Source of the DNA: a virus
Reading direction: 5' to 3' (one strand)
DNA length: 64,000 bases
IMG/VR virus record: IMGVR_UViG_3300046692_000091
Coordinates: 1 to 64,000 of that record
In this document: positions 15,718 to 20,278 of the stretch, in pieces
How the letters are laid out: every line of letters begins with the position of its first letter
Numbering within the stretch: position 1 is the stretch's first letter
The notes under the pieces: generated by a model
What the model was told of the DNA's origin: nothing
Database searches by the model: none
The model's input: the letters and a program-made list of their open reading frames with translations, nothing else
Made by a program: the position numbers and the translations under genes

Positions 15718-16511
15718 TGTTGTCTAATATTGAACATGGCCTCCAACACTTCGGTTTCGGTAAAGCATACATCGCGTTAGCACCAGAAACAGTTCGTAGT
15801 GAATCTTACTACATTGCACTTAGTGATGGTAAGACTACCTGGTATCTTGGCCGGCATGAGAACTGGATAACCGTGTACAATGAATCCATGTTGCTAACCT
15901 GGAATCAAACAGAGCACTTCTGGCTCAACGAACAACGTCCTAGGTTACTGCAAGGCATAGCACTGCAGGTGGGTCACATTGCCAAGAAGTTCGATATGAA
16001 AACAGTTTGTCTTAATCTGGTTGAACTCGATACCAACGTTATTGTAGACTCGGTCTGGATCGAACAGTACATCACCAAACGTGCTCAGTTGGTACCTATC
16101 TCCATGGCGATGAACTTATCACCCGAACAAACCCGTGGTGTGTATGCCGTAGGACAACAGCAATGTCAGGTTTTCGATAACTACCACATAACAACTCCGG
16201 CTACGACAGAAGAAAGTGACTGGGCTATCCCGACAGTTGCAGAATTCCGTAAGCGTCAGAACATGGACACTGTTACTTATCAAGAAGTGATGAATGCTGT
16301 TGAAGCATTATTCGAAGATCCAAAGATGTGGGATCAGCGTTTGGTTAGCGATGATCGTTATTATTGGACCATCGGAGTCCATGGTCAGGTAAGCCAAGGA
16401 CTCATGAACAAAGTAAAACTGGAACTTACTACAAAAGGCTGGGATGTCCTCTGGGGTCACAATTCAAGACACTGGGATCTGTCTCTGTATGTAAATAAGG
16501 AAAACAAGTAA
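15717..16511 (+). CDS. YW/GW-domain protein, 264 aa, long form
   Basis: ATG at 15717 overlaps the previous stop (TGATG). An N-terminal region of about 180 residues, unknown and alpha/beta-looking, is joined to a C-terminal YW/GW domain (YYWTIGVHGQVS, a helix, then KGWDVL) of about 75 residues. Paralogues of that last domain are at 12434, 18250, 18646 and 19988. The N-terminal part may be a separate targeting or enzyme module. Its stop overlaps the next start. Confidence 0.75.
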   Translation: MLSNIEHGLQHFGFGKAYIALAPETVRSESYYIALSDGKTTWYLGRHENWITVYNESMLLTWNQTEHFWLNEQRPRLLQGIALQVGHIAKKFDMKTVCLNLVELDTNVIVDSVWIEQYITKRAQLVPISMAMNLSPEQTRGVYAVGQQQCQVFDNYHITTPATTEESDWAIPTVAEFRKRQNMDTVTYQEVMNAVEALFEDPKMWDQRLVSDDRYYWTIGVHGQVSQGLMNKVKLELTTKGWDVLWGHNSRHWDLSLYVNKENK

Positions 16512-16807
16512 TGCACGTAACTAAGTTTATGTCTCGACACGTACCAACCATTCCCGAGGATCTCAACATTGTTGAATATCCATCTGCTGGAATGTTCCTG
16601 GTAGATTTGAAACGTCGTGCCCGTGCTGTGGCAGGACTCCGTGGTGTCACCAATGCAGATACCATGTCTCTCGATCTGAATGCTTTGCAACATGCTGAGC
16701 GTAAGATCGTTGATGGTTACAAAGGAAAGTTCTCGGTTGATGAACACATCATCGCTGAGTACGCAATTCACGTCGCAAACGAATCCTGCTATTGGAACTT
16801 CAAATAA
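16511..16807 (+). CDS. Small soluble early protein, 98 aa
   Basis: ATG overlaps the previous stop (TAATG), after AAGGAAAACAAG. Basic middle (DLKRRARAVAGLRG), helical C-terminal half, no membrane segment. It lies directly upstream of the alarmone-hydrolase-like gene. Function unknown. Confidence 0.7.
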   Translation: MHVTKFMSRHVPTIPEDLNIVEYPSAGMFLVDLKRRARAVAGLRGVTNADTMSLDLNALQHAERKIVDGYKGKFSVDEHIIAEYAIHVANESCYWNFK

Positions 16808-16856: not shown

Positions 16857-17393
16857 ATGTCAGTAATAGTAGAACAAGCAAGAGCATTCTGTGTAGGTGC
16901 CCATACCGCGGTAGGACAAGTACGCAAATATACTTTTGAAGATTACCATTGGCATCCGTTCGGCGTTCTAGAGATCCTGGAACTCGCTGCGGATGTCGAT
17001 GATGAAATGCGTTGTGGTGCTTTACTGCATGACGTAGAAGAAGATACCGCTACTAAAAATGGTCACATTGCGTGGATATTCGGTACGGGTGTCGCTTCAC
17101 TGGTCTCTGACCTAACTGACGTATCGAAACCAGAAGATGGTAATCGGGAAGTTCGTAAGGCCATTGATCGGGAACATACAGCAAAAGCACAACCGCGAGC
17201 TAAAACCATTAAGCTTGCTGACTTGATCCACAACTCCAGAAACATCATGGAGTGCGATCTGAAGTTTGCTAAGGTGTACATGCCTGAGAAACGGGCACTG
17301 TTGGAAGTCCTTACTGAAGGAGACCCAACGCTGTATGCTATCGCTAAAGAAATCGTAGATAACTATTTCCTGGAGAACCCTGATGTTTCGTAA
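16857..17393 (+). CDS. MESH1-like HD-domain (p)ppGpp hydrolase
   Basis: The 178 residues match the stand-alone hydrolase half of RelA/SpoT proteins: His33-Pro34, GALLHDVEEDT (54-64, the HDxxED signature with His58-Asp59 and Glu62-Asp63), FGTGVASLVSDLTDV (75-89), and IKLADLIHN (118-126, Asp122 and Asn126). Length and spacing agree with MESH1, which is about 180 residues, binds manganese and removes the 3' pyrophosphate of ppGpp; MESH1 also acts on NADPH. No synthetase or regulatory domain follows. I chose ATG 16857 with GGTGGTG upstream; GTG at 16848 or 16851 and ATG 16680 are alternatives. Overlaps the next gene by 11 bases. The likely role is lowering host alarmone. Confidence 0.85.
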   Translation: MSVIVEQARAFCVGAHTAVGQVRKYTFEDYHWHPFGVLEILELAADVDDEMRCGALLHDVEEDTATKNGHIAWIFGTGVASLVSDLTDVSKPEDGNREVRKAIDREHTAKAQPRAKTIKLADLIHNSRNIMECDLKFAKVYMPEKRALLEVLTEGDPTLYAIAKEIVDNYFLENPDVS

Positions 17394-17814
17394 ACTGAAA
17401 GAAGCCCTCATTGGCGTTTGGTCTGATGATCGTGATCCAAACGCCCCACTGCGTCGTGAACGCGCTGACATGAATCGTCGCGTAGCGAATCTGGTGGAGC
17501 GGGCTATTGTAAGTGGCGCATACGCCGGCCCACGTTTAGCCGATGACGGTTTCATGTGTATCGTTCTGAGCAACACTGTCGATGATATTGAAGCGGCAAA
17601 GGTAGCAAGAGAACGGATCATGCACCGTATCTATCCGAAGGTATCTTTGGTGTCTTATCTGGTGGAACACGACGAGCTTGATCTTACAGACGACCAGTTT
17701 ACAATGCGTATCCATGCCTCGAATTGGTACTGGAAATTTGTTAATGAACAACGCGGTCATGCAGATCGCCTTGAACAAAATTGCTGCCCCTTCCAATTTA
17801 ATAAGGTTCTGTGA
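17383..17814 (+). CDS. Early protein, 143 aa, tandem paralogue A
   Basis: Starts inside the last codons of the HD hydrolase gene after TGGAGAACCCTG. Pairs with the next gene: both begin with a basic M(F)R-x-(F/L)(K/R) segment, carry FMCIVLS / FMCVAVS in the middle and a WYWKF / WYWQF motif near the end. No membrane segment or catalytic residue set seen. A tandem duplication is the simplest origin. Confidence 0.75.
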   Translation: MFRKLKEALIGVWSDDRDPNAPLRRERADMNRRVANLVERAIVSGAYAGPRLADDGFMCIVLSNTVDDIEAAKVARERIMHRIYPKVSLVSYLVEHDELDLTDDQFTMRIHASNWYWKFVNEQRGHADRLEQNCCPFQFNKVL

Positions 17815-18245
17815 TGCGTGAAGCTTTTCGTAATCTCTTTGTAAAGTATCTCCCTGGCTGTGACTATGCTCGTGGTATCGAATTCGAGCGTAAGCGGGAT
17901 CAAGAAGTACACGAACTCCGTACTGCCGCTGCAACAATCAAAAAGATGTTGTGTAAAGGCTATTATTTCCAGCCATATTCTGCGTTCATGTGTGTAGCTG
18001 TGTCGCAAGCAAATCATCGTAAAGAACTCACTGACGAAGAATGCATTATCACCAGAAAGGTGATTGCAACTGAGTTGGGTGATGACCAGGTCCTTGCGAT
18101 CCACATGCGTTATCGCGGTGAACGTCTCGAAGACGATTATGATGGCGATGAATTCGTTGCACGTATTGCCCGTTCCGTATGGTACTGGCAGTTCATCAAA
18201 CGTCTGCAGCTCCGTGCAGCCCAACGCTCAGCACAGTTCTGGTGA
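17814..18245 (+). CDS. Early protein, 143 aa, tandem paralogue B
   Basis: ATG at 17814 overlaps the previous stop (GTGATG; GTG at 17811 also possible). Same plan as the 17383 protein: basic start (MREAFRNLF), central FMCVAVS, acidic stretch (LEDDYDGDEF) and late SVWYWQF. Its stop is 4 bases before the next start. Function unknown. Confidence 0.75.
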   Translation: MREAFRNLFVKYLPGCDYARGIEFERKRDQEVHELRTAAATIKKMLCKGYYFQPYSAFMCVAVSQANHRKELTDEECIITRKVIATELGDDQVLAIHMRYRGERLEDDYDGDEFVARIARSVWYWQFIKRLQLRAAQRSAQFW

Positions 18246-18249
18246 TCCC

Positions 18250-18540
18250 ATGAAACTCCCAACTTCCCGAGACGTAGTCGGTATGTTAGTTAGAGAACAA
18301 ATCGAAGCCTTCGAAAAAGAAATGAACCAGCAGATGCACACAGCTGGATCAGCAGCATGTAATTCTCGTACTGAACCAGAAGGGAAGAATCGTCGTTACT
18401 GGAACATCGGTGTTAATGGCAAAATCAATGTCACGACCTTTCTACACATTCGGGACGAACTACGTAAAGTAGGTTGGCAAGTCCTGGAATTGGTCGATCA
18501 TGGCGCTGATCGCTACTCATTCAGAATCGCAGTATTGTGA
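18250..18540 (+). CDS. YW/GW-domain family protein, 96 aa
   Basis: ATG at 18250 follows the previous stop by 4 bases. Layout: an N-terminal helix (EQIEAFEKEMNQQM), then RYWNIGVNGKIN, a helix with IRDELRK, GWQVLELVDHG. The whole of this protein corresponds to the C-terminal domains of the 18646 and 15717 proteins and to the 19988 protein. No catalytic motif. Followed by a strong terminator. Confidence 0.75.
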   Translation: MKLPTSRDVVGMLVREQIEAFEKEMNQQMHTAGSAACNSRTEPEGKNRRYWNIGVNGKINVTTFLHIRDELRKVGWQVLELVDHGADRYSFRIAVL

Positions 18541-18645: not shown

Positions 18646-19359
18646 ATGTCTAACCTTATCCGCGTTTATATTCGCAATACCCGTACCTCCACTGTTTACT
18701 ATCTCGTATTAGTAGGCGGGAAATGCGAATGGCGCGAGAAACACACCATGATCGATGCGGTCCGTGAAGCTATGTGGTTTGACCGCGGTAGCGAAACGTT
18801 CACCAATATGTACAAGGAAGTCGCAGATTTCATCAAAGCCTCGCCAGATCTGGCGAAGTACGTTGAAGTAATTGTCGAAGATAACAACCATGGTACTTTC
18901 TATCGCGGTGACCTCCAAGGGCTCATCAACCTCGAAACCACTTCCACTCACATCGCTGATGCAATGGCGAATATCCCTGCAGAACCTGCTGTTGAAAAAG
19001 TTCAGGTGGTAACACCCGAACCGGTCGAACCAGTGGAGATCCAACCCCCGAGACATATTGTCTCAACCGCTCAAGTTCTCGACGTTGCTAACGAAGAGAT
19101 CATCGATGAGTTCTGTGAAGAGTTCAACGATAAAATGTCCAAAGGTCAATGGGTCTTAGACCACGCGATTTATGGGTCAGGCGGTAAACAATATTGGAAG
19201 TTTACCTACCCAGGTACTTTCAATGCCCGTACCATTGAAGCAATCGAGAACATCCTGAAGGAAGGCGGATGGCACATTATGGACGTTACCCATGGGGAAA
19301 GCAAGGGTGCGTTTATTGATGGTCCATTTACCTGCCTGGATGTAGGACGAGCCGCTTAA
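18646..19359 (+). CDS. YW/GW-domain protein, 237 aa, long form
   Basis: TAGGAGCAACACC precedes the ATG. The N-terminal domain of about 115 residues is unknown; a Pro/Val/Glu linker (PEPVEPVEIQPP) follows at about 124-135; the C-terminal 90 residues are a YW/GW domain (EFCEEFNDKM, QYWKFTYPG, GGWHIMDV). The linker shows two separable modules. It is the first gene behind the 18611 promoter. Function unknown. Confidence 0.75.
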   Translation: MSNLIRVYIRNTRTSTVYYLVLVGGKCEWREKHTMIDAVREAMWFDRGSETFTNMYKEVADFIKASPDLAKYVEVIVEDNNHGTFYRGDLQGLINLETTSTHIADAMANIPAEPAVEKVQVVTPEPVEPVEIQPPRHIVSTAQVLDVANEEIIDEFCEEFNDKMSKGQWVLDHAIYGSGGKQYWKFTYPGTFNARTIEAIENILKEGGWHIMDVTHGESKGAFIDGPFTCLDVGRAA

Positions 19360-19987: not shown

Positions 19988-20278
19988 ATGTCACGTGTAA
20001 TTTCTGCTGCACAGGCGCTCGGCCAACTCCGCGACGATCAAGTTGATGAATTTTTCACCGAATTCAATGACTGCATGAAAGATCCACAATGGGTCGATTC
20101 ATGGCGTTGCGGCCTGCCTGATGCAAACTACTGGCGGTTCTCTATGCATGGGGAACACAACGTCGCCACGGAATTAAAAATCCGTAGTGAACTGGAAATA
20201 GCCGGTTGGAAAGTAAACGAAGTGGCGCGCGGGGTAGACCGCAATGCTTATACCTGCTACTGCGTTGCAAAAGCGTAA
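19988..20278 (+). CDS. YW/GW-domain family protein, 96 aa
   Basis: AAGGAAATATA precedes the ATG. Nearly the same layout as 18250 and the C-terminal domain of 18646: EFFTEFNDCM, a WV pair, NYWRFSMHGEHN, IRSELE, AGWKVNEVARG. The EF(F/C)xEFND start links it most closely to the 18646 domain. Function unknown. Confidence 0.75.
   Translation: MSRVISAAQALGQLRDDQVDEFFTEFNDCMKDPQWVDSWRCGLPDANYWRFSMHGEHNVATELKIRSELEIAGWKVNEVARGVDRNAYTCYCVAKA

What the first reader, a model, noticed from the sequence alone, without database searches (positions are those of the whole stretch)
16857..17393. Phage-borne MESH1-like alarmone hydrolase
HD, HDxxED and the LADxxHN motif keep the exact spacing of MESH1/SpoT hydrolases (Asp122, Asn126), and all metal ligands are present. 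Phage genes that destroy (p)ppGpp would keep ribosome and nucleotide synthesis running and could block stringent-response or toxin-linked defences. NADPH is another known substrate of this family.
Basis: partly seen in the sequence, partly recalled or inferred. Interest (0 to 1): 0.75.

Follow-up and report, generated by a model that had tools for sequence, protein, structure and literature searches.

The report
Jumbo-phage small alarmone hydrolase, PaSpo type
A large bacteria-infecting virus carries an intact gene for a small enzyme predicted to strip pyrophosphate from bacterial alarm nucleotides or from chemically blocked tRNAs, a kind of gene already known in many phages, so it is an ordinary but well-supported member of a known family.

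Summary
ORF 16857-17393 (+) encodes 178 aa with every metal ligand and catalytic residue of the RelA/SpoT-homologue hydrolase domain (R23, H33, H58-D59, E62-D63, K119, D122, N126). The AlphaFold2 model (pLDDT 96.5) matches MESH1 best among solved structures (TM 0.84-0.86). The gene lies in a 314.8-kb record related to Pseudomonas jumbo phages Psa21, D6 and RVTF4, keeps its neighbourhood in Psa21 and D6, and its family evolves under purifying selection. 'MESH1' is right for the fold and catalysis but not the lineage: the tree puts it, with SSU5 PaSpo and other phage enzymes, on the other side of a 100/99 branch from metazoan MESH1 and long Rel/SpoT, and an AU test disfavours a joint clade (p=0.012). 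The most similar enzyme with published activity that I found is PaSpo of Salmonella phage SSU5 (43% identical, same PHROG), reported to remove the pyrophosphate that toxSAS toxins put on tRNA. My preferred function is therefore counter-defence against toxSAS/CapRel-type systems, with general alarmone lowering as the main rival. At least 176 phage records carry relatives, and a 2021 jumbo-phage survey already proposed this role. New member of a known kind; substrate and role are untested.

The parts
16857..17393 (+). small alarmone hydrolase (SAH) gene, 178 aa, PaSpo type; metal ligands H33, H58, D59, D122; catalytic E62, D63; substrate side R23, K24, K119, N126
16511..16807 (+). upstream conserved small ORF (98 aa), syntenic in Psa21, D6 and L006, function unknown; neighbour, not shown to act with the SAH
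   Evidence: (46-60% identity), PHROG 26983
17383..17814 (+). downstream small ORF (143 aa) overlapping the SAH stop by 11 nt (possible translational coupling); paralogue of the next ORF; D6 has the same arrangement; neighbour, not shown to act with the SAH

Best explanation
The gene encodes an active, single-domain, probably Mn2+-dependent small alarmone hydrolase of the PaSpo type. It most likely removes the 3'-pyrophosphate that host RelA/SpoT-fold toxins (toxSAS, CapRel and kin) attach to tRNA CCA ends or to purine nucleotides when they sense infection, so that translation and nucleotide pools stay usable for the phage. Shown here: intact ORF, complete active site, predicted fold, purifying selection in the family, synteny, lineage. 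Inferred from relatives: Mn2+ dependence, tRNA or nucleotide depyrophosphorylation, counter-defence role.
For: All metal and catalytic residues are present and invariant among 15 divergent phage/plasmid homologues including a phiKZ-species phage and SSU5. Confident AF2 model, pLDDT 96.5, best PDB matches MESH1 then P. aeruginosa SAH. SSU5 PaSpo shares PHROG 990 and is 43% identical and lies on the same side of the 100/99 branch; it is reported to counteract FaRel2 by removing its tRNA modification (PMC11559606) and was co-expressed for CapRel-SJ46 purification (PMC9712102). No alarmone synthetase domain in this record, so it is not half of a phage toxin-antitoxin pair. dN/dS 0.06-0.17.
Against: No activity measured. 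Window and SSU5 proteins differ at 57% of aligned residues, and SSU5's exact position inside the phage clade is unresolved. SAHs differ in substrates: M. [quoted passage not shown] No tRNA-repair genes were found next to it; Thg1 lies near the SAH in 201phi2-1 and Viktualia but was not found in this record.
Confidence: 0.55

Rival explanations
1. It is a general (p)ppGpp (and perhaps (p)ppApp) hydrolase that lowers host alarmones to keep transcription, translation and nucleotide synthesis running in stressed cells.
For: The same active site as Rel/SpoT and MESH1; SAHs such as MESH1 and XccSAH act on (p)ppGpp (PMC9765508); pppGpp, ppGpp and tRNA-pp share the 3'-pyrophosphate leaving group, so both activities may coexist. 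A similar suggestion was made for phage Adele (PMC12846349).
Against: The closest enzyme with a published activity that I found is reported for tRNA; some phages grow worse in (p)ppGpp-null hosts (PMC12814882), so lowering ppGpp is not always an advantage.
Confidence: 0.3
2. The main substrate is another 2'- or 3'-phosphorylated nucleotide such as NADPH or PAPS, so the enzyme changes redox cofactors or sulphur metabolism.
For: MESH1 has an NADPH complex (5vxa) and a PAPS complex (9chy, the top fold match); XccSAH also cleaves NADPH (PMC9765508).
Against: XccSAH, which lacks the MESH1 nicotinamide-riboside motif, is about 40-fold less efficient on NADPH than MESH1 (PMC9765508); the window protein is outside the MESH1 clade.
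Confidence: 0.08
3. An ordinary HD-family nucleotidase or an inactive remnant.
For: HD-domain nucleotidases are common in phages (general knowledge).
Against: RSH-specific residues (R23, K24, HDxxED, LADxxHN) are all kept; the top 50 fold matches are RSH proteins; purifying selection.
Confidence: 0.05

Closest known systems
PaSpo small alarmone hydrolase of Salmonella phage SSU5 (SSU5_099, AFL47026.1)
   Same: phage-borne, single RSH hydrolase domain, PHROG 990, 43% identity over 152 aa, all catalytic residues, same side of the 100/99 branch
   Different: SSU5 has a 103-kb genome and similar SAHs lie on ~110-kb enterobacterial plasmids; PaSpo has about 35 extra residues; its activity is published, the window protein's is not
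phiKZ-like phage homologues: 201phi2-1 gp325, phiKZ gp246 (as cited in the 201phi2-1 record), Viktualia, RVTF4, Psa21, D6
   Same: phage orthologues or close homologues in phiKZ-like jumbo phages, 32-60% identical, annotated phosphohydrolase, polyphosphate hydrolase or (p)ppGpp hydrolase; neighbourhood shared with Psa21 and D6
   Different: the phiKZ-species copy (KTN4_298) is divergent and lacks K24; Thg1 neighbour in 201phi2-1 and Viktualia only
Metazoan MESH1 (3nqw, 3nr1, 5vxa, 9chy)
   Same: fold (TM 0.83-0.86) and all catalytic and metal residues
   Different: 26-28% identity; separate clade (100/99; AU p=0.012 against joining); different inter-motif loop lengths
HD-alarmone PDease of jumbo phages (Iyer et al. 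2021, PMC7824862)
   Same: the same kind of gene and proposed role
   Different: that paper's example protein (BBI90576.1) was not compared with the window protein here

Membership tests
Small alarmone hydrolase (RSH superfamily) | RSH-type HD hydrolase domain | tested here: met
   PF13328 45.5 bits over cut-off 27.2; PDB hits all RSH-type hydrolases
Small alarmone hydrolase (RSH superfamily) | metal ligands H, HD, D and catalytic ED, plus Asn in LADxxxN | tested here: met
   H33, H58, D59, D122, E62, D63, N126; invariant in alignment A2
Small alarmone hydrolase (RSH superfamily) | no synthetase, TGS or ACT domains | tested here: met
   178 aa single domain; no PF04607 match in the record
Small alarmone hydrolase (RSH superfamily) | hydrolysis of 3'-pyrophosphate substrates | not testable with these tools
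   needs enzymology
PaSpo-type phage SAH | groups with SSU5 PaSpo rather than with MESH1 or long RSH | tested here: met
   branch 100/99, AU test against MESH1 clade p=0.012; resolution inside the clade is poor and the other named SAH subgroups were not all sampled
PaSpo-type phage SAH | neutralises toxSAS toxins / depyrophosphorylates tRNA | not testable with these tools
   reported for SSU5 PaSpo only (PMC11559606)
MESH1 | MESH1 fold | tested here: met
   TM 0.83-0.86
MESH1 | member of MESH1 clade | tested here: not met
MESH1 | nicotinamide-riboside motif / NADPH phosphatase | not tested
   motif positions could not be read from a held paper

The most novel reading that the evidence does not exclude
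The SAHs of phiKZ-like jumbo phages act mainly as tRNA 3'-depyrophosphorylases that erase toxSAS/CapRel damage, a dedicated repair-type counter-defence in phages whose DNA is shielded but whose translation is exposed in the cytoplasm.
Probability: 0.35. Interest if true: 0.55.

Novelty: new member of a known kind. Interest (0 to 1): 0.3.

Why it matters
Nucleus-forming jumbo phages hide their DNA but still translate in the host cytoplasm, so defences that poison tRNA or nucleotides remain a threat to them. If this enzyme reverses toxSAS modification, it would help explain why the gene is kept in many jumbo phages and would give a testable counter to CapRel-type immunity. The gene class and the general idea are already in the literature, so the gain is in naming the right relative (PaSpo, not MESH1) and the right substrate to test first (pyrophosphorylated tRNA). 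Nucleus formation was not tested for this particular phage.

Tried and rejected
MESH1 membership: rejected by tree and AU test. Phage toxin-antitoxin pair: no RelA/SpoT synthetase in the record. tRNA-repair package: Thg1 and CCA-adding enzyme not found; RNA ligase search (PF09511) uninformative because no control genome rang. NUDIX partner enzyme: none. PADLOC: no match. PhuZ tubulin with Pfam Tubulin: none, not interpreted because PhuZ is divergent. phiKZ gp246 in held phiKZ proteomics and core-genome papers: no mention in their main text.

Full report
What is there. The ORF at 16857-17393 (+) encodes 178 aa. Pfam HD_4 (8.8e-12), NCBIfam spoT_relA (2.1e-15, below that full-length model's cut-off) and PHROG 990 'metal-dependent phosphohydrolase' (1.6e-28) agree. 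The PDB sequence search finds only RSH-type hydrolases, MESH1 first. The aligned residues are R23/K24 (RelSeq R44/K45; MESH1 R24/K25), H33, H58-D59, E62-D63, K119, D122 and N126; D122 and N126 carry the same numbers as in MESH1 (numbers counted from the alignments; roles of the residues from general knowledge of the family). All of these but K24 are invariant in 15 divergent phage/plasmid homologues. Spacing between motifs differs by 1 and 3 residues from MESH1, so 'exact spacing' is true only inside the motifs.

Structure. AlphaFold2 on an alignment of 23 sequences (the window protein and 22 from viral contigs) gives pLDDT 96.5 and pTM 0.92. Foldseek against the PDB ranks human and fly MESH1 first (TM 0.83-0.86), then the P. 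aeruginosa, Corynebacterium and Leptospira SAHs and Rel/SpoT domains. No other HD enzyme class appears in the top 50.

Lineage. In a 61-row maximum-likelihood tree a 100/99 branch separates metazoan MESH1, MESH1-like bacterial SAHs and long Rel/SpoT from all the phage SAHs, SSU5 PaSpo and seven bacterial SAHs. The window protein is in a 99/94 clade with L006, Psa21, D6, RVTF4, 201phi2-1, Viktualia and a P. aeruginosa plasmid copy. Holding the window clade together with MESH1 costs 34 log units (AU p=0.012); the groups for that test were named after seeing the tree, so it is supporting rather than independent evidence. The bootstrap had not fully settled and the relations inside the phage clade, SSU5's place among them, are weak; MESH1 and Lmo0812 were entered as fragments. 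So the fold is MESH1's but the lineage is not.

Nearest known activity. PaSpo from Salmonella phage SSU5 (43% identity, same PHROG) is reported to counteract the tRNA-pyrophosphorylating toxin FaRel2 by removing its modification (PMC11559606), and was co-expressed when CapRel-SJ46 was purified (PMC9712102). CapRel-SJ46 is an anti-phage system triggered by a capsid protein. This makes toxSAS-directed counter-defence the best-supported function for the window gene, by homology; (p)ppGpp and (p)ppApp remain plausible additional substrates.

Host genome. The window belongs to a 314,814-base virus record related to Pseudomonas phages D6, Psa21 and RVTF4 (structural genes about 75-80% identical in DNA; helicase 86-88%). 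The SAH is roughly 7-9 kb from the replicative helicase in all four, and the small ORFs around it are shared with Psa21, D6 and viral contig L006. No alarmone synthetase domain was found. The record has 11 tRNA genes at 201.6-208.1 kb.

Selection. dN/dS is 0.06-0.17 in 11 of 12 homologue pairs and not computable in the twelfth. Among pairs of close metagenomic relatives dS is about 0.5-1.0 and usable; pairs with the window itself have high or saturated dS, so their values are rough.

Prior knowledge. At least 176 phage and 265 plasmid records hold relatives, including phiKZ-species phages. SAHs were classed into seven groups including paSpo in 2011 (PMC3153485). Iyer et al. 2021 propose an HD-alarmone phosphodiesterase of jumbo phages as counter to alarmone-based immunity (PMC7824862); the phage Adele paper discusses a phage SAH (PMC12846349). 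I found no paper in the held library that tests a jumbo-phage SAH, but the library lacks most subscription journals.

Verdict. A real, intact, conserved gene, correctly spotted; ordinary as a class. What is added here is the lineage (PaSpo-type) and hence pyrophosphorylated tRNA as the first substrate to test.

Noticed in passing
17383-18245: Two adjacent small ORFs downstream of the SAH are paralogues of each other and are also duplicated in Psa21, D6 and L006.
   Followed up: partly
18064-18540, 18646-19359, 19988-20278: Three ORFs share a ~90-aa C-terminal domain; the middle one has a weak, sub-cut-off match to the phiKZ capsid decoration protein gp244 family, and the phiKZ numbering gp244-246 hints at a shared neighbourhood.
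   Followed up: partly
L005 1743-5612 and L045 3373-5618: In 201phi2-1 and Viktualia a tRNA-His guanylyltransferase (Thg1) gene sits a few genes upstream of the SAH; the window's record has no detectable Thg1.
   Followed up: partly
L047 4881-5507 (pPALA50): Large P. aeruginosa plasmids (222-283 kb; pPALA50 typed non-mobilizable) carry a SAH that groups inside the Pseudomonas jumbo-phage clade, suggesting gene exchange.
   Followed up: partly
L043 4872-5528 (KTN4_298): The phiKZ-species homologue is annotated 'putative virion-associated protein'; if packaged, the enzyme could act at the start of infection.
   Followed up: no
outside the window: G000 201596-208110: Cluster of 11 tRNA genes on the minus strand including two tRNA-Thr.
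   Followed up: no
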